Shown here: one piece after another, positions 59-42,936 of the stretch
Layout of the letters: every line of letters begins with the position of its first letter
Numbering within the stretch: the first letter of the stretch is position 1
DNA from: Chromera velia
Lineage: Eukaryota > Sar > Chromeraceae
NCBI GenBank assembly: GCA_018398765.1
Contig: JAHBMJ010004310.1
Location: 35,576 to 82,184 of the forward strand
DNA length: 46,609 bases
Reading direction: 5' to 3'
Notes under the pieces: model-generated
What the model saw: the letters and a program-made list of their open reading frames with translations, nothing else
Told to the model about the DNA's origin: nothing
Databases searched by the model: none
Translations under genes and position numbers: made by a program

Positions 59-658
59 CTCTGCAAAAGTCCCAAGGCCATCACCTGGTTGATCTGTCCA
101 TCAACGTTTCTGTCATTGTTCTGGAACAGAGGGGCGTGAGACACCACAGTGAAGACCTGAGGAGGCACGGAAGAGAAGGAACCAGAGAGGGGGGTACGAC
201 ATTAAATTTCGAATCCAATGAAAGAATTGTGGGTGTTCAATCTGAGGAGGCTCTGAGGGGAATTCAGTTGAGAAGGAAGGGTGCAGGTTCCAGCGTATCC
301 TGCAAATATAGAGGGGCATCGCAGAGGGGCCCTAAAGCATATAGAGTGAAGGGGAGCTAAAGAAACGCCCTGGAGACTCGACCACCATGACTGCATGAGT
401 GCATGGGTCTCTTGACCGACACACAGCCCTGTAGACGGAGTGCTGTCTAGCCTTCCTGCCTACCTGCAGAGCCACGTTTCCCTTGAGGAGCCTGGGGAGG
501 TCTACATGGCCGATGCTGTTCTCCTCGAGGAGTGATCGGTCTCTCCACAAGAGTACATCGCAATGAAGGTCAGACACAAACGGAAGGGAATCGTTGAGCT
601 CCAAGAAAGCTGGAGATGCGCTCCGAATCATCTCCTCTCCGACAAAAAAATCATTCAT
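59..658 (-). CDS. M19 (membrane/renal-type) dipeptidase, N-terminal exons, partial
   Basis: Zinc-dependent M19 dipeptidases hydrolyse dipeptides. Exon 658-464 encodes 65 residues from MNDFF to NVALQ, including LPFVSDLHCD, the HxD zinc-ligand motif, followed by GHVDLPRLLKGNVALQ. It ends in CAG|GTAGG. Exon 156-59 starts after a CTCCTCAG acceptor, in frame (phase 0), and reads VFTVVSHAPLFQNNDRN; it ends at AG|GTGGGG in phase 2. The join NVALQ|VFTVV is the family's usual continuation. The reading frame stays open upstream of the ATG to 850 and encodes a hydrophobic stretch ending FAGLVDWH. M19 proteins with an N-terminal membrane anchor have a similar VDxxxN segment, so the true start may be further upstream. 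The catalytic remainder lies beyond the left edge. This is array copy 1, the only copy directly followed by exon 2. Confidence 0.8.
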
Positions 659-1201
659 GTGCCAATCGACCAATCCAGCAAAGAGTTCCGTCACATAAAC
701 GTACCATGCGAATGCGTCTAACACGAAGAAATAGATGCGAAACTTCGAGCCGCATGCTCTAAACAAAAAACGAAGGAGCATAAGTATAAAAGCTTGGCCA
801 AGTACGACATGCCATATTTTTGCTAGCATTTTCTTCACCAACAAAATCAATAGTCACTTGTGGATCACCCCCAAGCACAAAGAGCCTGCCAGCAGAACAG
901 TCCGAGGAGATGGCAAACGTACACAGCGAAGAGACATCCAAAGCAACAGTCCGACAGACGCTTAATTCACCCCTTCGGATCACTGATAAGAATGGCCAAC
1001 TCACAGTGCATTGGAGAAGTAAGGACCTTTAAGACCTTGTATGCCCAATAATTAGTTTATATAGTCCACTTTTCTTCCGACCGGTTCCACTTATGTCAAA
1101 TTTTGTAATGCATGCGGGACTACTTTTTCCCCTTGCGTGACAAAACACAAAGTTTGTGTACTGCATGCATGCATAGAGTGCTGTCCAGCCTTCCTGCCTA
1201 C

Positions 1202-1396
1202 CTGCAGAGCCACGTTTTCCTTGAGGAGCCTGGGGAGGTCCACATGGCCGATGCTGTTCTCCTCGAGGAGTGATCGGTCTCTCCACAAGAGTGCGTCGCA
1301 ATGAAGGTCAGACACAAACGGAAGGGAATCGTTGAGCTCCAAGAAAGCTGGAGATGCGCTCCGAATCATCTCCTCTCCGACAAAAAAATCATTCAT
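1202..1396 (-). CDS. M19 dipeptidase first-exon copy 2
   Basis: This is array copy 2 of the 65-codon exon, with DLHCD, the GHVDLPRL stretch and the CAG|GTAGG donor intact and no stop between the ATG at 1396 and the donor. Upstream, in the frame that stays open in copies 1, 3 and 5, a TAG at 1444-1442 replaces a Trp codon. If the protein starts at the internal ATG this copy is usable; if it needs the upstream hydrophobic segment it is broken. It may be an alternative first exon spliced to exon 156-59, or a dead duplicate. Confidence 0.6.
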
Positions 1397-1939
1397 GTGC
1401 CAATCGACCAATCCAGCAAAGAGTTCCGTTGCATAAATGTACTATGCGAATGCATTCAACACAAAGAAATAGATCCGAAACTTCGAACTGCATGCTCTGA
1501 ACAAAAAACGAAGGAGCACGAGTATAAAAGCTTGGCCAAGCACGACATGCCACATTTTTGCTAGCATTTTCTTCACCAACAAAATCAATAGTCACTTGTG
1601 GATCGCCCCTAAGCACAAAGAGCCTGCCAGCAGAACAGTCCGAGGAGACGGCAAACGTACACAGCGAAGAGACGTCCAAAGCAACAGTCCAACAGACGCT
1701 TAATTCACCCCTTCGGATCACTGATAAGAATGGCCAACTCACAGTGCATTGGAGAAGTAAGGACCTTCGAGACCTTGTATGCCCAATGATTAGTTTACAT
1801 AGTCCACTTTTCTTCCAACCGGTTCCACTTATGTCAAATTTTGCAATGCATGCGGGACTACTTTTTCTCCTTGCGTGACAAAACACAAAGTTTATGTACT
1901 GCATGCATGCATGGAGTGCTGTCCAGCCTTCCTGCCTAC

Positions 1940-2134
1940 CTGTAGAGCCACGTTTCCCTTGAGGAGCCTGGGGAGGTCTACATGGCCGATGCTGTTCTCT
2001 TCGAGGAGTGATCGGTCTCTCCACAAGAGTGCGTCGCAATGAAGGTCAGACACAAACGGAAGGGAATCGTTGAGCTCCAAAAAAGCTGGAGATGCGCTCC
2101 GAATCATCTCCTCTCCGACAAAAAAATCATTCAT
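1940..2134 (-). CDS. M19 dipeptidase first-exon copy 3
   Basis: This is array copy 3. The exon is fully open and the frame continues upstream to 2326 without a stop, including the hydrophobic leader. The donor is intact; a silent change makes the preceding Leu codon CTA. It could act as an alternative first exon. Confidence 0.62.
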
Positions 2135-2677
2135 GTGCCAATCGACCAATCCAACAAAGAGTTCCGTTGCATAAACGTACCATGCGAATGCGTCCAACAC
2201 GAAGAAATAGATCCGAAACTTCGAGCTGCATGCTCTGAATAAAAAACGAAGGAGCACGAGTATAAAAGCTTGGCCAAGCACGACACGCCACATTTTTGCT
2301 AGCATTTTCTTCACCAACAAAATCAATAGTCACTCGTGGATCGCCCCTAAGCACAAAGAGCCTGCCAGCAGAACAGTCCAAGGAGACGGCAAACGTACAC
2401 AGCGAAGAGACGTTCAAAGCAACAGTCCGACAGACGCTTAATTCACCCCTTCGGATCACTGATAAGAATGGCCAACTCACAGTGCATTGGAGAAGTAAGG
2501 ACCTTCGAGACCTTGTATGCCCAATGATTAGTTTATATAGTCCACTTTTCTTCCAACCGGTTCCACTTATATCAAATTTTGCAATGCATGCGGGACTACT
2601 TTTTCCCCTTACGTAACAAAACACAAAGTTTGTGTACTGCATGCATACATGGAGTGCTGTCCAGCCTTCCTGCCTAC

Positions 2678-2872
2678 CTGCAGAGCCACGTTTCCCTTGA
2701 GGAGCCTGGGGAGGTCCACATGGCCGATGCTGTTCTCCTCGAGGAGTGATTGGTCTCTCCACAAGAGTGCGTCGCAATGAAGGTCAGACACAAACGGAAG
2801 GGAATCGTTGAGCTCCAAAAAAGCTAGAGATGCGCTCCGAATCATTTCCTCTTCAACAAAAAAATCATTCAT
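2678..2872 (-). CDS. M19 dipeptidase first-exon copy 4
   Basis: This is array copy 4. The exon is open from ATG 2872 to the donor, with Pro to Leu and Gly to Glu changes early in the exon. Just upstream, TGA at 2878-2876 replaces the Trp of the VDW motif, separating the exon from its otherwise open upstream leader. Confidence 0.58.
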
Positions 2873-3415
2873 GTGTCAATCGACCAATCCAGCAAAGAGT
2901 TCCGCCATATAAACGTACCATGCGAATGCGTCCAACACGAAGAAATAGATGCGAAACTTCGAGCTGCATGCTCTGAACAAAAAACGAAGGAGCATGAGTA
3001 TAAAAGCTTGGCTAAGCACGACACACCACATTTTTGCTAGCATTTTCTTCACCAACAAAATCAATAGTCACTTGTGGATCGCCCCCAAGCATAAAGAGCC
3101 TGCCAGCAGAACAGTCCGAGGAGACGGCAAATGTACACAGCAAAGAGACGTCCAAAGCAACAGTCCGACAGACGCTTAATTCACCCCTTCGGATCACTGA
3201 TAAGAATGGCCAACTCACAGTGCATTGGAGAAGTAAGGACTTTCGAGACCTTGTATGCCCAATGATTAGTTTACATAGTCCACTTTTCTTCCGACCGGTT
3301 CCACTTATGTCAAATTTTGCAATGCATGCGGGACTACTTTTTCCCCTTACGTGACAAAACACAAAGTTTGTGTACTGCATGCATGCATGGAGTGCTGTCC
3401 AGCCTTCCTGCCTAC

Positions 3416-3610
3416 CTGCAGAGCCACGTTTTCCTTGAGGAGCCTGGGGAGGTCTACATGGCCAATGCTGTTCTCCTTGAGGAGTGATCGGTCTCTCCAC
3501 AAGAGTGCGTCGCAATGAAGGTCAGACACAAACGGAAGGGAATCGTTGAGCTCCAAAAAAGCTAGAGATGCGCTCCGAATCATCTCCTCTCCAACAAAAA
3601 AATCATTCAT
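3416..3610 (-). CDS. M19 dipeptidase first-exon copy 5
   Basis: This is array copy 5. The exon and the upstream leader are fully open (to 3802), and DLHCD and the donor are intact. With copies 1 and 3 it is one of three copies without a nonsense change. Confidence 0.62.
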
Positions 3611-4153
3611 GTGCCAATCGACCAATCCAGCAAAGAGTTCTGTCACATAAATGTACCATGCGAATGCGTCCAACACGAAGAAATAGATGCGAAACTTCGA
3701 GCCGCATGCTCTGAACAAAAAACGAAGGAGCACGAGTATAAAAGCTTGGCTAAGCACGACACGCCACATTTTTGCTAGCATTTTCTTCACCAACAAAATC
3801 AATAGTCACTTGTGGATCGCCCCCAAGCACAAAGAGCCTACCAGCAGAACAGTCCGAGGAGATGGCAAACGTACACAGCGAAGAGACGTCCAAAGCAACA
3901 GTCTGACAGACGCTTAATTCACCCCTTCGGATCACTGATAAGAATGGCCAACTCACAGTGCATTGGAGAAGTAAGGACTTTCAAGACCTTGTATGCCCAA
4001 TGATTAGTTTATATAGTCCACTTTTCTTCCAACCGGTTCCACTTATGTCAAATTTTGCAATGCATGCGGGACTACTTTTTCCCCTTGCGTGACAAAACAT
4101 AAAGTTTGTGTACTGCATGCATGCATGGAGTGCTGTCCAGCCTTCTTGCCTAC

Positions 4154-4348
4154 CTGCAGAGCCACGTTTTCTTTGAGGAGCCTGGGGAGGTCCACATGGC
4201 CGATGCTGTTCTCCTCGAGGAGTGATCGGTCTCTCCACAAGAGTGCGTCGCAATGAAGGTCAGACACAAACAGAAGGGAATCGTTGAGCTCCAAAAAAGC
4301 TGGAGATGCGCTCCGAATCATCTCTTCTCTGACAAAAAAATCATTTAT
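4154..4348 (-). pseudogene. M19 dipeptidase first-exon copy 6, start lost
   Basis: This is array copy 6, furthest from exon 2. The ATG used in the other copies is ATA here, and a TAA at 4354-4352 replaces the VDW Trp two codons upstream. Translation could only begin at the internal EEM methionine. The donor, GCAGGTAGGCAAG, is still usable. Confidence 0.5.
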
Positions 4349-4866
4349 GTGTTAATCGACCAATCCAGCAAAGAGTTCCGTCACATAAACGTACCATGCG
4401 AATGCGTCTAACACGAAGAAATAGATCCAAAACTTCGAGCCGCATGCTCTGAACAAAAAATGAAGGAGCATGAGTATAAAAGCTTGGCCAAGCACGACAC
4501 ACCACATTTTTGCTAGCATTTTCTTCACCAACAAAATCAATAGTCACTTGTGGATCGCCCCTAAGTACAAAGAGCCTGCCAGCAGAACAGTCCGAGGAGA
4601 TGGTAAACGTACACAGCGAAGAGACGTCCAAAGCAACAGTCCGACAGACACTTAATTCACCCCTTCGGATCACTGATAAGAATGGCCAACTCACAGTGCA
4701 TTGGAGAAGTAAGGACCTTCGAGACCTTGTATGCCCAATGATTAGTTTACATAGTCCACTTTTCTTCCGACCGGTTCCACTTATGTCAAATTTTGCAATG
4801 CATGCGGGACTACTTTTTCCCCTTGCGTGACAAAACACAAAGTTTGTGTACTGCATGCATGCATGG

Positions 4867-5235
4867 CATTGCATGCGTAGAGTACATGCAGTGCGTGTAG
4901 TCCGCGAAATACCTATAGCTCGATCGGCGCGCAATGCTCTCGATGGACACATGCATGCGCGCCCACTCTAAAAGAAATAACACCGATACAGCTCTGTATG
5001 CGCAGAATGGCAGCTCAAATTTTAAAATCCGGACCCCTTAAATGAGTCGAATGGGCGTTCCCTTCAATGAAGGAGCTCTCTTCTTCCCCTCCCTTCGTCG
5101 ACAAACAATCGAAGTCTTCGCCAAGAGCCGCTTGCACCAGTAGACGGAGTCAAGTGGAGGACGAGCGCACTGCGCAGTCTGACATGCAACTGTTGCTTGA
5201 AATGTTCCAACATGCACTACAATCACATGCGTAAA
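4867..5235. other. Spacer between dipeptidase array and giant gene
   Basis: This is unique sequence after the last array unit. It begins with further GCATGC-type motifs (about 4855-4875 and 4950-4962) and ends at the chosen start of the multidomain gene. It would hold the upstream regions of two divergently oriented genes. No defined promoter element beyond the GCATGC motifs is supported. Confidence 0.4.
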
Positions 5236-6491
5236 ATGTACCGTTCCTCTCCCACAGGTCTCTTGAGGCGCTGTCTAACTCTTCTTTTACTGATCTGTAC
5301 ATCAATGTCTCAGCCCTTCGATACGGGAAGAGTGCAGGCAGACCACAACTGGAGATGGGTCTCTTTGAGAGAGTCTTTCTCCAACCCCGCAGTAATTGTA
5401 ACAAAAACAACTTTTGGAAATCCCGACTCTCTGATTCGCACTCGGAACATCAACGGAACGGGGTTCGAGGTCAGGGTGGATACATACGAGTCAAGAGCTT
5501 TCGTTTATGACGATGTTGACTACGTTGTCTACGACACAGGGGGCAATTACACAACAGATTCTGGCAGCTTGATCGAGGTGATGACTTTCACTGCCACTTC
5601 CAGTTGGCAAACTTTTGCTTATCCAACCTCCCGGTCGGCCTCTCCTGTGGTGGTGTGTCACGTACAGTCATATGTCGATATCGGATTCAAACTGGTCCGA
5701 GTCGATGACATCACCACCAGCAATTTTAAAGCGATGGTTGACCGTGACAAATCAAACCAAGGCACTAAAAACCCCGAGACGGTGGGATGTCTTGTGTCTG
5801 AACGCATCAACAGTCCGGAAACTTTCAAAGACAGAGGGGTGATTGCGAGGATACAGACAAATGTGAAACACAATTGGCTCAACTTGGCCGACCTGCCGGC
5901 TTCGCAAGTCGGTGCGAACTTTCAAAGACCCTCCTTCGCAGGAGCACTGTCCTCCTTCAAGGGCGGTGACCCTGCAGTGGCATTCTTCCGACCCACATCT
6001 GATGTCAGTGGCAACATCTGTGTAGAACTGTTGTGTTTCACCAGCCTCGTTCCCTTTGCTTGTCGGAGATCTGCTGCCCTTTTCGCTTTGCCGTGTGATG
6101 AATATTACTGTTGACATCCTTTCTTGTCATCTTCACATTTTCCCTCCTGTGTTTCCTACTTCTTCATTTTTCAACCTACTGCCCACCCTTCAGTCAACAG
6201 TTCCTACTACTACTTAATTTGGTCAACAGTTCCAGCTTGACAATTCACTGAAAGTGGCCCCGCTCCCTTTCGCTTGTGCGTTCTTCTCTCCCACGTGCTC
6301 TTGTGCTCTGTCTGAAGCCCCAAACAATGCTGCAAACAAACAAGTAATCCCAAACACCGTTTGTTGCCTTGCATGATTTGTGTTGCAGCCTGAAGTGATG
6401 CAGACAGCAGTGATCGAGGACCTCTCGACGGACGGGGGCACACACACAAACGAAGAAGTGCACTACCTCGCATTTGACCTTGTGCCTTCAG
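5236..6491 (+). CDS. Exons 1-2: signal peptide and H-type-lectin-like modules
   Basis: After a hydrophobic leader ([15 protein letters not shown]) come three related beta-sandwich-like segments. Repeat 1 has the pattern F.NPAVIV and [15 protein letters not shown]; repeat 2 has SPVVVCHVQ and [11 protein letters not shown] ending ETVGCLV; repeat 3 has [11 protein letters not shown] and, in exon 2, [15 protein letters not shown]. These patterns match the H-type-lectin-like modules of secreted adhesion proteins, so sugar binding is possible. Exon 2 (6389-6491) was found by translation: acceptor TGTTGCAG, donor G|GTCTGT, phase 1, as the EGF exons require. The exon 1 donor is probably at 6003 (gtcagt); 6021 is an alternative. 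Confidence 0.65.
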
Positions 6492-23839: not shown

Positions 23840-25118
23840 TCTCTGTAGATTGATCATTAATTGATTCTAAAAGTAAAAAAAACGTCAGACTGCAGATTTC
23901 AATCCTTACAATATAAATTCACTGCGACTAAGCAACTGCTAGTCAACTGCTTAAGCATGTTTAAGTTACTCTCAACAGTGAATTGCTTTACCAGTTACTA
24001 TATTAGCTAGGCGCCGCACATAAAAAAAAAAAAAAAAATAGGCGCCTTCAACTTTTTTTTTTTTTTTTAGGTTAAAAGTTAGGTTCACATTTTATGTGGA
24101 AAAGTAAGTTTCAGAGTCGAAAGTGTTTCTTTTCTTTTTGGAGACACGTACTTGAAATAAAAAAATAAAAAAAAAGAAGAAAAAAAATAGGTCTTCCCAA
24201 CTTTTTTTTTCTTTTTTTTTTCTATGTGCGGTGCCTAGTATATTAGCCGCTGAGTTTATCTAGTTTAAAATAGTTTCCCAAGTAGTTTTCTTTGTTAAAC
24301 TTATAGTTTTTGATAATAAGTATTAAAAATATTTAGAAAAACATATTTTATGATTCATGTTTTTATTTTACACCTTAGTAACACCTGGTTTCATGCAAAT
24401 TTGAGTTAACTGGTGATTTTTAGTGATTTTTTTTAAAGGCCCAGAAGCTTAGTTCATCTTAATTCATCCTGAATCTAGAATAAAATTGATTAACTTACAC
24501 CATTTAAATGCTGATATGCAATAAGTTACGATGAGCTATAAATTACAAACTTGAAAAAGAAAACAAAAGTATAGTTTACTAAGTGAGTGATATAAGTATA
24601 ACAATATATTTCTACCTCTTTGACGGTATGAATTTGTTTTCTGCATGCACTAAGCTCAGTGAGCTGCACAAAAAGAGACTATTTTTATTCTGAAGTTAAT
24701 TTTTTAGTTAAATCTGAATACAGTTTGCTTCATTAATCGATCCATCCTATGCAACTTGACTATTTTTTCCTGTTATTGAATGCTTTAAACTTTAAGTATT
24801 TCAGTACCATCCTCTGGGACGATTTCAGCACCAACAAGAGTAGTAGCGCAGGACTCGATCACTGCGACAAGACGCAATCCAGATTTACTCCCATGAAGCT
24901 CAACATTGCCCTCTTGATGCCCACTTCCCCAGCTTGATCAAGCGCTCGTTGATAATGCTGATTCCTCGAGCTTTTCCCGATCTTTCTCTCCTTTGTGTCT
25001 GGTCTATAAGTCACACTCCCATTTATATGCCTGTCTGGAGAAGTGTAGGTTCACCCGTCTCCATTTCTGCAGCAAGGAAAAAACAGCGGCAGCCAGCAGC
25101 CAGAGCGCCCCTGTACCC
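23840..25118. other. AT-rich spacer
   Basis: Between the 3' end of the giant gene (plus) and the minus-strand proline-rich gene. Composition drops sharply to AT-rich, with poly-A/T runs near 24023, 24053 and 24170-24220. It contains the small inverted-repeat element at 24007-24238. From about 24740 to 25118 the composition recovers, but I found no supported coding exon there. The 3' UTRs of both convergent genes should lie here. Confidence 0.6.
24007..24238. mobile_element. MITE-like element, 232 bp, 8-bp TSD
   Basis: The left end ctaggcgccgcacata is mirrored by the right end tatgtgcggtgcctag (two mismatches). Both ends are flanked by an identical direct repeat, tatattag, at 23999-24006 and 24239-24246. 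The inside is A/T homopolymers and has no ORF. An 8-bp duplication is typical of hAT-type insertions; the family assignment is inference. Confidence 0.75.
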
Positions 25119-36335: not shown

Positions 36336-36679
36336 CGTAACATAGTGAGGCGAGCCACGGGACTGGCCAATCCCGGGGTGAGCCAAACTAACGCGCACCG
36401 CCGCCGCACGGGATGCTCGCAGCTCAAAGACCAACACATGCACGCAGGCTCATGGAGGCACCACTATGCCAGTCTGTATTAGAAGAGAATTAAATAAAAT
36501 AGAAATAAAGTGGAATTAATTCAGTCAGCTGCGTATAGCCTGGATTGAGTAAACAACAGTTACTTGCAAAGCTTCTAGAAGCAGTTTGGAAGTGAACCTT
36601 GAACTGACAGACTTTCCGTAGTAGAGATCTAACCTAACTAAGTGTGCTCACTTAGGAGAAGAGGAGTTACCTCCTTACG
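36336..36679 (+). repeat. 5' LTR
   Basis: 344 bp, bounded by cgtaa and ttacg (short inverted ends). By eye it differs from the 3' LTR at 11 sites, all transitions. Confidence 0.95.
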
Positions 36680-36697
36680 TGGTAGCACAGAGCCTAG
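36680..36697 (+). other. Primer binding site
   Basis: TGGTAGCACAGAGCC begins immediately after the 5' LTR and resembles the initiator-Met tRNA 3'-end complement (TGGTATCAGAGC type) used by many Ty3/gypsy elements. Confidence 0.7.
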
Positions 36698-36801
36698 TTG
36701 ATCTCTCCAGGACCTCTGTTACTCAGTCCAATACTGTAACAGTCATCTTCTTTCTTGGCAAGTAAATTCTTTTCTTCTCCTAAGACTCTCTCTCGATAGA
36801 G

Positions 36802-37869
36802 CAGGTTCTGCAGCAATTGCTGGAGGGGCAGCAATTCATGTAGCAGCAGATGATCTAGGCACAGTAGACGCAACAACTTCAGCAATAACAGATGGATGCT
36901 CTGGGAGCACAGCAGCAACAAACAGCCACCGACGGGGGCCCAATCTATCAACAGCAGCAGCAGACACCAGAACAGCAGCAGCAGCAGCGGATGAATCAAC
37001 AGCCGACTTCTCCATCTCCCCAGCGGTCGAACTTTAAGGTGAAAGAGCCGCCGGTGTTTCATGGGGACTGGAAGTTGCTCGAAGGTTGGGTCGCGGATAT
37101 GAGGGAATACATACAGCTCTCCGATATTCAGGTGTCGAAGCAGTTGGGGTCAGTACATCAATACTTCTCCCGATTCCTCAAGTAATGGTATGACAAGACG
37201 CAGAGGTCCGCCTCCCCTTTTGTTAACGTAGAAGATCTCTTCACCCGTCTGTCCGAGCGTTTCCCCGATCCCAACAAACAGACAGACTTGAGAGGGGAAG
37301 TCCGAAACGTCCGTTGTCAGGGCAATGAGGGGGTTCACAAGTACTCTGTCCGATTCAACGATATTGCAGAAAAAATCGTTGATGTGAGTGAGATCGATTT
37401 GATGTACAACTATATTTGGGGCCTTCCGGATAAGGTGAGGAAGGAAGTGAGGAGGAGGAAGCCTGACAGTCTCGATGCTGCGATGAAGGATGCAGAGGAG
37501 GCCGAGCAGCTGTTGAGTGGGGGGAGAAAGAAAGACTACGGGGGCCAGGGCAGAGACGGGCGAAGTGATTCGCACCCGTCTTTGCAACCTCAGTCCCTGG
37601 CCAATCAAACGATGGGCCCGTCCCGATGGATCTCAACCGAATCTCCCGAATTTATTCCCTTTCCCAAGATGAGATCAAGAGGCACATTCAGAAGAATAGG
37701 TGCTTCAATTGTCACACGGTGGGACACTCTGCACGCCAATGCAGGAACCGCAAGCAGTAACAGCAACAACAGGGTCCTAGGGGTCATAGGGGTCAGAGAA
37801 ATTTCTATGGAGGTCAGGGACGCATGCACAACCTACAGAATGGGGTGCAGCAGCACTACGGTGGTTTAG
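36802..37869 (+). pseudogene. gag: gag (capsid, zinc knuckle), broken
   Basis: A Gln-rich N terminus leads to a capsid-like region: PPVFHGDWKLLEGWVADMREYI, then WYDKTQ ... FTRLSERFPDP, then YNYIWGLPDKVRKEVRRRKP. In the frame of ATG 36892, stops at 36841, 36856, 36865, 36886 and 37183 all sit in Gln-rich or Gln-plausible positions. After a frameshift around 37540-37610 the frame reads MDLNRISRIYSLSQDEIKRH and the zinc knuckle CFNCHTVGHSARQC (CX2CX4HX4C, 37701-37742). Gag packages element RNA. Confidence 0.85.
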
Positions 37870-38765
37870 TGCAAGGGCAGTGGGGGAATCCAGTCATCCC
37901 ACAGGGGCTTACACCTCCCCCTGGACTGTGCCCACCACTGCAGTTCCAGGGGAACCCTCCCCAGTGGTCATAGCGTCAGCAGCAGAATGCACCCCCGAGA
38001 GGGATGTACTCCACGAGTGGGGGCAGGACAGGCAGGAGGGGGAAATTGATCACCTTCCACGGCACAGCGAATGGCATCCCGATCCGTGCCCTTTGGGATC
38101 CAGGGGTGGACTCCATTTATGTGAGCAAGAGAGTTGTTGAGGCCGGGGAGTTCCGTTTATCTGCCTTGGAGCCCTCCACGTGCAAAGGGGGCATCCGACT
38201 CGATGGTGCGCAGGCTCCCTCGACTACTGTCCAATGGGAGGCGCCTGATATCGATCTAAAAATTCAGGACTTCGCAGCCCCCCTGACCATGACTGTACTC
38301 GATTTAGATGAGAATTATGATGTGGTCCTGGGGATGCCCTTCTGTGAGACCTTCAAACCCCTTTCCAATTTCGAAGCGAAGTCTTTCTTCATCGCTGCAG
38401 ATCGTTCTCCCTCCGGGTCGCAGTTCACACTGTATAACTCGGAAATCTACCATATTCCGGGGGCCAAGCCTGAGCCCCTGACCCACAGAGAGATCCGTAG
38501 GCTTTCCAAGAAGGAATCTACCACCTTCCAGTGCTACTGTCTTGAGGTCCGCCCTCTTCCCTCCGTTTCCTCCCCCCTAGAGGTCAACCAAATTCAAGGA
38601 GCCACGACACAGAAGCCCCCGCCTCTCTCGTCTTTCCCGCCCGATCACCCAGTCAATTCGGATGATTTAAATTTATACAGATTTCCGCAGGGAAGTGCAG
38701 AGGGAGGGAATGAGGCCGGGGATAAGAAAGGTTCTGGAGAAGCATTTCAGCATCTTCCCAAATGA
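37743..38765 (+). pseudogene. Aspartic protease region of pol
   Basis: Same frame as the zinc knuckle, with in-frame TAA 37758 and TAG 37971 in Gln-rich linker. The protease reads GIPIRALWDPGVDSIYVS, where the expected catalytic D-S/T-G is D-P-G, and later NYDVVLGMPF, the conserved second motif. A TGA at 38763 ends this frame; RT continues in another frame from about 38695, so a frameshift lies just before. Confidence 0.8.
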
Positions 38766-40696
38766 GATTCCCACCCTTCCGCCCAAGAGGGAAGTCGAGT
38801 GTCATATCAAACTCGAGCCAGGTCACCACCCCCCTGCTCGAGCTCCGTATAGGCTCACCTACGGGCAGCTCGATGAGCTCCGAAAAGAGTTGGAGTCATA
38901 CTTGGCCAAGGGTCAGATCCGCCCTTCCAACTCCCCGTTTGCTGCCCCTGTCCTTTTTGTTATGAAGGCTGACGGCACTCAGCGTATATGTATTGATTAC
39001 ACGCAGCTAAACAAGATCTGTGTGAGGGACAGATATCCCCTGCCGCATCCGGATGACTTAATTTCCCGCCTGCACGGGGCCAAGTACTTCTCGTCTCTCG
39101 ACTTGAGACAGTACTTCCATCAGATCCGGATGGCCGAGGGCGACGAAGAGAAAACTGCTTTCGTAACAAGGTACGGCACGTTTGAGTGGCTGGTCATACC
39201 GTTTGGTTACTGCAATGTGCCCGGTATTAGCATGCGTATGATCAGTAAGACATTGTGCCCTTTGTTAGACAGGTGTGTAATTGTTTTTATTGATGATCTC
39301 TTGATTTTCAGCCGCACTCCTGAGGAACACGAGAGAGACGTGGAGGCCGTCCTCCAGCTCCTTACCGACGAGTCTCTCTATGTCAAACTGTCGAAGTGTG
39401 GTTGGTTCCGGACGGAAGCCAAGTTCCTGGGGCTGATCATCAGTGAGGGTGGATTCAGGCCTGCGCTTGAAAAGGTGCAGGGACTCCAGGACTTCCCCAA
39501 GCCGACCGACCGCACTTCACTGCGTCAGTTTTTGGGGTTAGGGAATTGGTTTCGGAAGTTTGTTAGGGGGTACAGCCAGGTTGCTTCTCCCCTTCTCTCT
39601 CTTCTCCGCACCTCAATCCCCTTTGTATGGGAGCCTGTGCATGATCAAGCATTCGTTGCTCTAAAGAAAGCTGTCCTTGAGCTTGCTACCCTTACACTGC
39701 CTAACCCCAGTCAGCCTGTCTACATTGCACACGACGCCTCATAGTCGCACCAAGCCATCGGGGCAGTTGCTATTCAGCGCTGTCAGAAGACAGGGGCATA
39801 CTGTCTGCTTGCCTTCGGCTTCCGCCGCCTGACCCCACTGAGGCACGCTACCCAGTGCAGGAGTTAGAGCTGTTGGCGATTGTCCATTTTGCGAAAGTTT
39901 GGCGTTATTTCCTGACGCCCAGGTCGGAGTTTTGGACAGATCACAAGAGTTTGGAGAATTTGGGGAAGTCGTTTGAGCACTGCAGTCTGCGTGTGAGACG
40001 GTGGATTGAGTTTTTGGAGGAAGTGGCGGTTTCAATCAAATATATTCCACGGAGGGCGAACATCGTTGCCGACGCACTTTCCCGCAATCCGCCTCCTTTG
40101 GTCCAGTCCTCCCCTTCTGCCCCTTTGCCATCTCTCAGAGTGAGGCAACCCACCCTGCCGACGGTTAGTCAGGCCGACGGTCCTGACGACGATGAGGTCC
40201 CAGGGCTTGAACCTAAGTATGAGGATGAGGGGGCAGTTGTTGGCGAGACCCGTTCTTTGGGGGGGGGGCACGGGGGCACTGAGGAGCGTCGGTACTGGAC
40301 AACCTTGAAGGTTGAGGGAGATGTTGAGCTGCAGAGGCGCTGCAGAGAGGCGTATGCAAACGATCCCTGGTTTGCCCCGGTGTATGCTTACCTGAAAAAT
40401 TCCCCAAACAAACTTCTCTCCCCTCATCTGGTGCCCCGTTTGAAAGGTCTCTCTCTGAGAGATGGTCTGTTGTTCCGGGGGGACTGCTTTTGTGTCCCTC
40501 GCTCACAGCGCACGGCTCTTATTTGGGAGAGCCACTCATCTCCAGAGAGTGCACACTTCGGGGTCAGGAAAACCTACAGTCGAATGGCAGAAAGATATTT
40601 CTGGCCTCAGATGTGGAGAGATGTACGCAGATTCGTTCGTGCCTGTGATCCCTGCCAGAGAAAAGACAAATCTATCCCGAACGGTCTCCAACAGTA
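38695..40696 (+). pseudogene. pol: Reverse transcriptase, RNase H and integrase N terminus
   Basis: RT motifs: PYRLTYGQLDELRKELE, IRPSNSPFAAPVLFV, RICIDYTQLNK, SSLDLRQYFHQIRM, catalytic VFIDDLLIFS, and the thumb FLGLGNWFRKFV. RNase H starts IAHDAS but is cut by TAG 39742. A frameshift near 39835 moves the frame to [18 protein letters not shown] and [12 protein letters not shown]. The integrase HHCC zinc finger follows ([16 protein letters not shown] ... CDPCQR), then the nested insertion at 40663. Confidence 0.93.
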
Positions 40697-41329
40697 AAAC
40701 GGTCTCCAAAACAACCATACCTCTCAAGCTTTTTTAGGCAGTAAACAATATTTAAAAGCTTAAAACAAAGAGTTTTAAGCAATTAAACAGTACGATTTCC
40801 TATTTTTAAATTAATTGGGTTTAGTAAGAGAAAAAAATATATTGTATTTGACCGTGCGGCGTGCGTGTTTCGTGCGTCAACGCACGTGCCTGTCATGCAT
40901 GCAATTAAGGCGGCGGCGGGGAGCACCGGAATTAAAGCAGCTTTGCTGAGGAGCTGGGGTTGCTTTCGCCATTCTTCCAGTGAGTCTATAGTTCCGTGAG
41001 TACTTGTAAAAGCTCTACACTATGTTTTATATGTTTTCAATCTTTCTCTTAAAACCTTAAGATTCATTGTAAAGAAAATATTTTAAAGAGTTAAAAACTT
41101 AAAATCATACATTCAAATTTAAATATATATATATAGTTATCATAAATCAAATTTTTATATAATTTTCTTACTAACTAGGATTTTAAAAACACTTAATTGC
41201 ACTCTCAAACCGTTTAAAACTCTTTGTTTTAAGTTTTTAATCATTGTTTAGTACCTAGAAATGTTTGATAGATATGGTAATTTTGGAGACCGTTTTGATG
41301 TTGGAGACCGTTTGGGATAGATTTGTCTT
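40663..41329. mobile_element. Nested 667-bp long-inverted-repeat element
   Basis: The ends are inverted copies of each other: aagacaaatctatcccgaac... on the left and the reverse complement on the right, about 46 of the first 49 bases. Similarity continues inward for about 125 bp (for example ttaaaacaaagagttttaa on both arms). The 4-bp sequence agaa is duplicated at 40659-40662 and 41330-41333. The interior is AT-rich with one GC-rich stretch near 40855-40935 and has no coding capacity. Taking out the element and one agaa leaves the integrase frame continuous (CQR|SKAP), which confirms the boundaries. Confidence 0.88.
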
Positions 41330-41908
41330 AGAAGCAAAGCTCCCAGCCGAGCGCCTCCCGGTCTCCTCCGACCGCTTCCTGTTCCCAACCACCCATGGGA
41401 AGTCACTCAAATTGATTTTCTCGTTGGACTGCCCGCCTCCGGGGATGAACAGTTTGACTGTCTTATGGTTGTCACTGACTCTCTGTCAAAAGGGGTATGC
41501 CTGATCCGGACCCACACAACAGCAACAGCAGAGCAGGCAGGCCGGCTATATTATGAAAACATCACAGTAAAGAAGGGGTGGCAGCGTATGATCCTCAGTG
41601 ACAGAGACCCCCGTTTTCTGTCTCGATTCTGGCAGACCCTACACACCCTCTCGGGCACGCACCTGTCATTCTCTACGATGGCACACCACGACACACCAGG
41701 GTCAGCAGAACGCATGAATCGAACAATCGAGGAGGCCCTCCGTTGCCTCGTTGAGACCCAGCATCACCGATGGGCGGAATTCATCCCGTTCCTTGAGTTT
41801 GCATACAACACATCTGTCCATGTCGGGACAGGTCGCTCTCCCTTTCAGCTTGAACACGGAAAAGAACCCCTCACGCTCCCTGCTCTTTCTCTTTCTCCTT
41901 CTGTCTAG
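41330..41908 (+). pseudogene. Integrase catalytic core
   Basis: After the nested insert the frame reads [22 protein letters not shown]. The D,D,E core follows: [24 protein letters not shown] and the Glu in [12 protein letters not shown] at 41906 interrupts the frame at [10 protein letters not shown]. Confidence 0.9.
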
Positions 41909-42478
41909 CCTTCCCCCGAGGCCTTTGACTTTTTGAAGGAACACAGAGAAGCCATTGAGTCCGCCCGCGCCTCTTTCGAAGCAGCCCAGTCCAGTCAAAT
42001 CCGAAATGCCAACAGGCGACGCTGCCCAACCAACGATATCAAGGTGGCGGACTATGTGCTTGTCCATCGCTCCTGGTGGGCAACTGCTGCAAAGCCCGAT
42101 GTCCCCCTGTACTGTGTAACAGCCGCAAGCTCGACAGCCTGTGGTTTGGTCCCTTCGAAGTGACCCAGTTCGATCAGTCCCGAGACAATTTCGAAGTCGC
42201 CCTACTAGCGGGAAGCCGCAAAGACCCCCATGTGCACACGTCGCTGTGCAAGCTGTACTGCCACGAAGGACGGGGCCGTCCGGCTGTCCGATTGCCCTCC
42301 TGGGCCGACAAAGAGTATGAAGTCGAAAAGGTCCTCGGTGTTCGGGGAAGAGGCAGAGGAATGTTCGGGGAAGAGGCAATGCCGCGTGCAATGGGTGGGG
42401 TTCCCTGAGAGTGAAGCGTCTTGGGAGCCAGTCTCCCACCTCCGAAATGCAAAGGAGAAAATCGAAGAATTCAAGTGA
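41909..42478 (+). pseudogene. Integrase C terminus with chromodomain
   Basis: The same frame continues [21 protein letters not shown] and [15 protein letters not shown]. Frames then shift: [13 protein letters not shown] (about 42310-42350) and [21 protein letters not shown] (about 42385-42440) are the two halves of a chromodomain, which directs integration to particular chromatin. A short duplicated gttcggggaagaggca at the shift (about 42342 and 42362) may be the cause. Confidence 0.85.
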
Positions 42479-42576
42479 CGATCAAAGTGAATAAACAGGA
42501 ATTGTACGGTCAATTTTGGTTGGCAGTTAACCGCAAAAAAGCTGAGAAGAAGGACAGAGCACGTGGGACACACGCT

Positions 42577-42592
42577 CCAAGGGGGAGGGGCA
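42577..42592 (+). other. Polypurine tract
   Basis: aagggggagggg followed by ca, immediately before the 3' LTR; it would prime plus-strand DNA synthesis. Confidence 0.85.
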
Positions 42593-42936
42593 CGTAACGT
42601 AGTGAGGCGAGCCACGGGACCGGCCAATCCCGGGGTGAGCCGAACTAACGCGCACCGCCGCCGCACGGGATGCCCGCAGCTCAAAGACCAACACATGCAC
42701 GCAGGCTCATGGAGGCGCCGCCATGCCAGTCTGTATTAGAAGAGAATTAAATAAAATAGAAATAAAGTGGAATTAATTCAGTCAGCTGCGTATAGCCTGG
42801 ATTGAGTAAACAACAGTTGCTTGCAAAGCTTCTAGAAGCAGTTTGGAAGTGAACCTTAAACTGACAGACTTTCCGTAGTAGAGATCTAACCTAATTAAGT
42901 GCGCTCACTTAGGAGAAGAGGAGTTACCTCCTTACG
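42593..42936 (+). repeat. 3' LTR
   Basis: 344 bp, co-linear with the 5' LTR and ending ttacg before the gtttg target duplication. Confidence 0.95.

What the first reader, a model, noticed from the sequence alone, without database searches (positions are those of the whole stretch)
438..4866. Six tandem first-exon cassettes of an M19 dipeptidase feeding one second exon
Each 738-bp unit carries upstream sequence, the DLHCD zinc-motif exon and a good splice donor, but only copy 1 is followed by exon 2. If each unit has its own promoter, this is a cluster of alternative first exons (protocadherin-like layout) giving near-identical N termini. Promoter-choice regulation, dosage of start sites or amino-acid tuning of the anchor are possible outcomes. 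I know of no described case for this enzyme family.
Basis: partly seen in the sequence, partly recalled or inferred. Interest (0 to 1): 0.75.

Follow-up and report, generated by a model that had tools for sequence, protein, structure and literature searches.

The report
Decaying tandem copies of gene start
Six back-to-back copies of the start of an alga's peptide-cutting enzyme gene are really there, but half are broken and all carry the one-way C-to-T changes seen in this genome's jumping genes, so they look more like worn-out duplicates than a set of alternative gene starts.

Summary
The array is real: six units of exactly 738 bp (window 438-4865), 95-97% alike, no indel. On the minus strand each holds upstream DNA, an anchor/DLHCD coding exon and an intact GT donor. 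One exon 2 (from 156) lies beside copy 1; 2,500 N follow just outside the window. Copies 2, 4 and 6 carry in-frame stops. Exon changes fit neutrality (23 nonsynonymous, 20 synonymous, 3 stop columns; expected 24, 16, 2). And 79 of 80 variable columns are transitions, 55 of 57 singletons C>T/G>A, mainly at CpG and CpA. Two retroelement-like repeats of this genome show the same one-way decay; light-harvesting gene duplicates and a 200-bp satellite do not. Best reading: a promoter-plus-first-exon segment, amplified to six, now decaying like a silenced repeat. Copy 1 is the natural first exon; 3 and 5 are still open. A working protocadherin-like cluster is unsupported but not excluded; no transcript data were available. 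The more interesting lead is repeat-associated C>T decay in a photosynthetic, non-fungal eukaryote: deamination of methylated repeats, or something RIP-like.

The parts
438..4865 (-). tandem array of six 738-bp units, gene sense on the minus strand
464..829 (-). copy 1 first coding exon, 122 codons, open; next to exon 2; TATATAA at 1057-1063
1202..1567 (-). copy 2 exon, stop at codon 42; TATGTAA upstream
1940..2305 (-). copy 3 exon, open; TATATAA upstream
2678..3043 (-). copy 4 exon, stop at codon 56; TATGTAA upstream
3416..3781 (-). copy 5 exon, open; TATATAA upstream
4154..4519 (-). copy 6 exon, stop at codon 56; TATGTAA upstream
59..156 (-). exon 2 (start after AG at 157-158; the 3' end at 59 or 85 is inferred from GT sites and weak homology)
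   Evidence: (weak match, E 0.65)
4751..4852 (-). stretch of the upstream region (copy 6) that resembles a low-copy dispersed element found in five other contigs; similarity may run on past the array edge

Best explanation
A segment with the upstream region and first coding exon of a membrane-anchored M19-type dipeptidase gene was duplicated in tandem at a 2-nt overlap (CC) and amplified to six copies. Copy 1, next to exon 2, is the ordinary first exon; copies 2-6 are redundant and any use by splicing over the proximal copies is incidental. All six have since diverged almost only by C>T/G>A changes with the context preference of this genome's retroelements, as a silenced repeat losing cytosines by deamination would, and this has already put stops into copies 2, 4 and 6. 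Shown: array, donors, stops, mutation spectrum, fit to neutrality. Inferred: route of amplification, silencing or methylation, lack of function, which copy is transcribed, and that the gene is complete beyond exon 2.
For: 79 of 80 variable columns are transitions; 55 of 57 singletons C>T/G>A; no indel. Stops in 3 of 6; neutral model gives a stop with probability 0.49 per copy. Exon columns 23 N, 20 S, 3 stop against 24.0, 16.2, 2.4; exon not less variable than flank (76 derived cells against 66.9 expected; flank 46 against 53.9). Same polarity and CpG, CpA lead in an LTR retroelement and a second repeat, not in light-harvesting duplicates (Fisher p 2e-10 against the longest). Junctions CTCC|ATGC.
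Against: Copies 1, 3 and 5 are open and all six donors, ATGs and start contexts are intact. Only 10-17 exon changes per copy, so weak selection on one copy cannot be excluded. No methylation or expression data. Dinucleotide indices do not set the array apart.
Confidence: 0.7

Rival explanations
1. A working cluster of alternative first exons: each unit has its own promoter and its donor splices to exon 2 over the proximal copies, giving more start sites or slightly different anchors, perhaps with only 1, 3 and 5 in use.
For: Each unit holds upstream DNA, exon and intact donor. TATATAA and an open frame go together in copies 1, 3 and 5. A database protein marked as the window's own (P0002) equals copy 2 from codon 67 joined to exon 2 (compared by eye), though it begins after the copy-2 stop and lacks the anchor.
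Against: Stops in 3 of 6; no sign of purifying or diversifying selection; the odd/even pattern is shared by only 2 of 80 columns.
Confidence: 0.12
2. An active, RIP-like process recognises repeated DNA in this alga and mutates C to T; the array is one of its targets.
For: Near absence of transversions and indels; all CpN contexts hit, CpG and CpA most; same polarity in two retroelement-like repeats; a 200-bp-unit satellite shows no such polarity.
Against: A 1973-bp light-harvesting gene duplicate at 94% shows 34 ti, 25 tv and 12 gap openings, so homology alone does not suffice. No RID-like enzyme identified: two DNMT2-like genes and one fragment. Dinucleotide indices show nothing. Passive decay of methylated DNA explains much of it.
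Confidence: 0.12
3. Assembly artefact: copy number or order is wrong.
For: A 2,500-N stretch lies next to exon 2; no reads available.
Against: 6-13 private variants per copy; variable columns at most 67 bp apart; the array has no N and passes into different sequence on both sides.
Confidence: 0.05

Closest known systems
Vertebrate UGT1 and GCNT2 variable-first-exon clusters (PMC1885805, passages seen)
   Same: Tandem first exons upstream of common exons of an enzyme gene; birth-and-death with pseudo-exons among them.
   Different: There the exons are divergent, each with its own promoter and shown to be spliced; here near-identical, neutral, half broken, no transcript evidence.
Repeat-induced point mutation of fungi (PMC9246332, passages seen)
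   Same: C>T-only decay of repeated DNA, almost no other changes.
   Different: Host is photosynthetic, not a fungus; a 2-kb gene duplicate escapes; no RID-like gene identified; meiotic timing unknown.
Spontaneous deamination of methylated transposons (general knowledge, not tested)
   Same: Repeat-biased C>T, CpG strongest.
   Different: The near absence of transversions and indels here is extreme and non-CpG sites are also hit; no methylation data.

Membership tests
M19 membrane dipeptidase | sequence relation to M19 over the N-terminal part with the HxD zinc motif (motif recalled) | tested here: met
   10 relatives with PF01244 at E 1e-3 or better among 226 candidates; DLHCD present in 6 of 6; but Pfam score 16.5 is below the cut-off 26
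M19 membrane dipeptidase | remaining catalytic domain | tested here: inconclusive
   not seen in the rest of contig C3528; 2,500 N follow exon 2; the only genome match to PF01244 is a different gene on C2041
alternative first-exon cluster | several first exons, each with donor, one common downstream exon | tested here: met
alternative first-exon cluster | intact coding potential of the variable exons | tested here: not met
   3 of 6 with in-frame stops
alternative first-exon cluster | own promoters and spliced transcripts | not testable with these tools
   no RNA data; TATA-like sites only
RIP | C>T-only change restricted to repeated DNA | tested here: inconclusive
   met for array and two other repeats; light-harvesting duplicates escape
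RIP | RID/Masc1-type methyltransferase | tested here: inconclusive
   PF00145: 4 matches in 3 contigs; two genes DNMT2-like, one fragment unclassified; the search is exon by exon and may miss genes
RIP | action in the sexual cycle | not testable with these tools
   no crosses or strains available

The most novel reading that the evidence does not exclude
A photosynthetic protist, outside fungi, has a directed, RIP-like genome defence that turns C to T in repeats (CpG and CpA first) and spares short-unit satellites and some gene duplicates; this six-copy first-exon array is a natural substrate that records it almost without background.
Probability: 0.14. Interest if true: 0.8.

Novelty: new member of a known kind. 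Interest (0 to 1): 0.42.

Why it matters
As a first-exon cluster the array is probably not functional. Its value is as a record: six aligned, near-neutral copies in which one mutational process can be read with almost no background. Set against retroelements and gene duplicates of the same genome, it points to repeat-associated cytosine decay in an alga. A review (PMC9246332, passages) lists RIP for fungi, mostly Ascomycota, and says it may well have evolved elsewhere; whether this is that or passive deamination can be tested directly.

Tried and rejected
Rest of the gene on another contig: C2041 carries PF01244 positions 78-318, the complement of exons 1-2, but its upstream exon is different and has no DLHCD (read by eye), so it is a separate gene.

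Odd/even pattern: stops and TATGTAA fall in copies 2, 4 and 6. Only 2 of 80 columns have that pattern, 154 of 253 informative column pairs are incompatible with a tree, and an alternating order has chance 2 in 20 (own arithmetic). Not pursued.

Shared promoter module: the dispersed element upstream of exon 1 (L007, L008, L048-L050) did not lie at a steady distance from open frames. Left open.

Dinucleotide indices did not separate array, retroelement and other stretches. Solved structures: no match for exons 1-2 at E 1. Organism: a light-harvesting protein matches many red-lineage types without identity (60 of 548 shown); size resembles but does not equal that published for Chromera velia (passages). 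Identity not established.

Literature: 10 searches. In the listings shown (for, 15 of 51 papers; for, 12 of 14) no title or start of abstract described RIP in an alga or a first-exon array of an M19 enzyme. Passages only were seen of PMC4501334, PMC9998398, PMC1885805 and PMC9246332; no paper was read whole.

Full report
Observation. Repeat finding gives six copies at a constant spacing of 738. The six units have exactly the same length and differ pairwise at 25-36 of 738 sites. On the minus strand each unit holds an upstream region, an ATG that opens 366 coding bases, and a GT donor, intact in 6 of 6. The exon has a hydrophobic N terminus and the DLHCD motif. Exon 2 (from 156 downward) follows copy 1 only; it was found once in contig C3528 (outside its N) and C2041:5001-23178. 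Exon 1 has six places genome-wide, all here.

What gene. Exons 1-2 score 16.5 bits with PF01244, below its cut-off of 26. With a full-length bait, 10 M19 proteins of 347-438 residues match this stretch at E 1e-3 or better. Support for exon 2 on its own is weak (E 0.65). Directly beyond exon 2 the contig reads 2,500 N, a scaffold gap or a withheld stretch, so the catalytic part cannot be seen. The only PF01244 match of the genome search is a different gene on C2041.

Missed, 1: broken copies. Copies 2, 4 and 6 have TAG, TGA and TAA at Trp codons 42, 56 and 56; 1, 3 and 5 are open. Under a context-matched C>T model without selection (5000 runs) a copy gains a stop with probability 0.49, so 3 of 6 is what neutrality gives. 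Exon columns: 23 nonsynonymous, 20 synonymous, 3 stop, against 24.0, 16.2 and 2.4 expected. The exon is not less variable than the flank (76 derived cells against 66.9 expected; flank 46 against 53.9). Copy 1 has 23 derived sites against 18-24 in the others; its exon changes, 6 N and 6 S, fit neutrality and weak constraint alike. Copy 3, with 3 N and 7 S, is the most conservative.

Missed, 2: the spectrum. Of 80 variable columns 79 are transitions and one is C/G; of 57 singletons 55 are C>T or G>A and 2 are A>G. Rates per C site fall in the order CpG 0.113, CpA 0.062, CpC 0.030, CpT 0.023.

Controls in the same genome. (a) An LTR retroelement in the window (reverse transcriptase and integrase domains), 12 of 42 matched places compared, the window's own among them: of 327 variable columns 304 are plain transitions, 16 plain transversions, 7 have three letters. 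Singletons: 190 C>T/G>A, 25 reverse, 13 transversions. CpG and CpA lead, less strongly than in the array. Its two 344-bp LTRs differ by 11 transitions and nothing else. (b) A second repeat, 4 copies: the contig's own and 3 of the 48 matches listed, chosen by me from those listed at 95-96%: 112 transition and 18 transversion columns; singletons 91 C>T/G>A, 8 reverse, 18 transversions; CpG and CpA lead again. (c) Light-harvesting gene duplicates, 11 distinct comparisons at 88% identity or more (three of its 14 rows repeat others): the longest, 1973 bp, has 34 ti, 25 tv, 12 gap openings; another 24:10; summed over the 11 overlapping comparisons 119:89 (own sum). Some of the closest go the other way (8:0, 5:1, 5:1). 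(d) A satellite of about 200-bp units on C2041, 40 units: transition-rich (80 of 110 variable columns) but not polarised, singletons 15 C>T/G>A, 11 reverse, 18 transversions. (e) Other short repeats of the contig range from 9:9 to 21:5. Array against the longest gene duplicate: Fisher p 2e-10; against retroelement columns: p 0.21. The array thus goes with the retroelements.

Origin. Inner junctions read CTCC|ATGC; the outer edges read CTCC|GTCT and TGCC|ATGC, a 2-nt overlap, which suggests end joining or template switching, then amplification. Most changes are private to one copy (57 of 80 columns), which suggests quick amplification and then divergence. The upstream edge lies in or near a low-copy dispersed element.

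Mechanism. The likeliest account is a repeat that is silenced, methylated and losing C by deamination, with stops as a by-product. Silencing and methylation are inferred, not shown. An active RIP-like process is the bolder account. For it: purity, all CpN contexts, sparing of the short-unit satellite. Against it: a 2-kb gene duplicate escaped, dinucleotide indices show nothing, and no RID-like enzyme was identified. PF00145 gives two DNMT2-like genes and one fragment ending in a motif-X-like stretch (motif recalled).

Organism. 58 matches to the chlorophyll-binding family show a photosynthetic host, so not a fungus. Genome size (177.8 Mb, 4040 contigs) resembles that published for Chromera velia (193.66 Mb, 5953 scaffolds; PMC4501334, passages), but identity was not established.

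A transcript begun at a distal copy could splice to exon 2 (inference). P0002, a database protein marked as the window's own, equals copy 2 from codon 67 plus exon 2 and runs on past it (by eye). It starts after the copy-2 stop and lacks the anchor, so I read it as a gene-finder product; that is a judgement, since its source is not shown. Arrayed first exons in enzymes, with pseudo-exons among them, are known from UGT1 and GCNT2 (PMC1885805, passages).

Verdict. A real array, probably ordinary in function, with an unusual and testable mutational signature.

Noticed in passing
window 36336-42936: LTR retroelement with 344-bp LTRs that differ by 11 transitions only; reverse transcriptase, RNase H and integrase domains; 42 matched places listed in the genome.
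   Followed up: partly
L015:5201-6978 (same contig, before the window): High-copy repeat, 92-99% alike in the matches listed, polarised C>T decay; type not identified.
   Followed up: partly
L010:3076-5575 (just below window position 1): 2,500 N beside exon 2. Part of the tail of database protein P0002 is not found in the visible genome, so the stretch may be known elsewhere.
   Followed up: partly
window 4751-4852 and L007, L008, L048-L050: Low-copy dispersed element with a conserved palindrome-like ACACAAACTTTGTGT core upstream of exon 1.
   Followed up: partly
window 24007-24238: Short dispersed repeat matching many contigs, with ends that match on both strands (foldback-like).
   Followed up: no
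L013:1-8610 (C2041): Satellite of about 200-bp units beside a second, different M19-type gene.
   Followed up: partly
window 5197-6114 (+): Open frame head-to-head with the array, no Pfam match; looks like an H-type lectin repeat protein (recalled, not tested).
   Followed up: no
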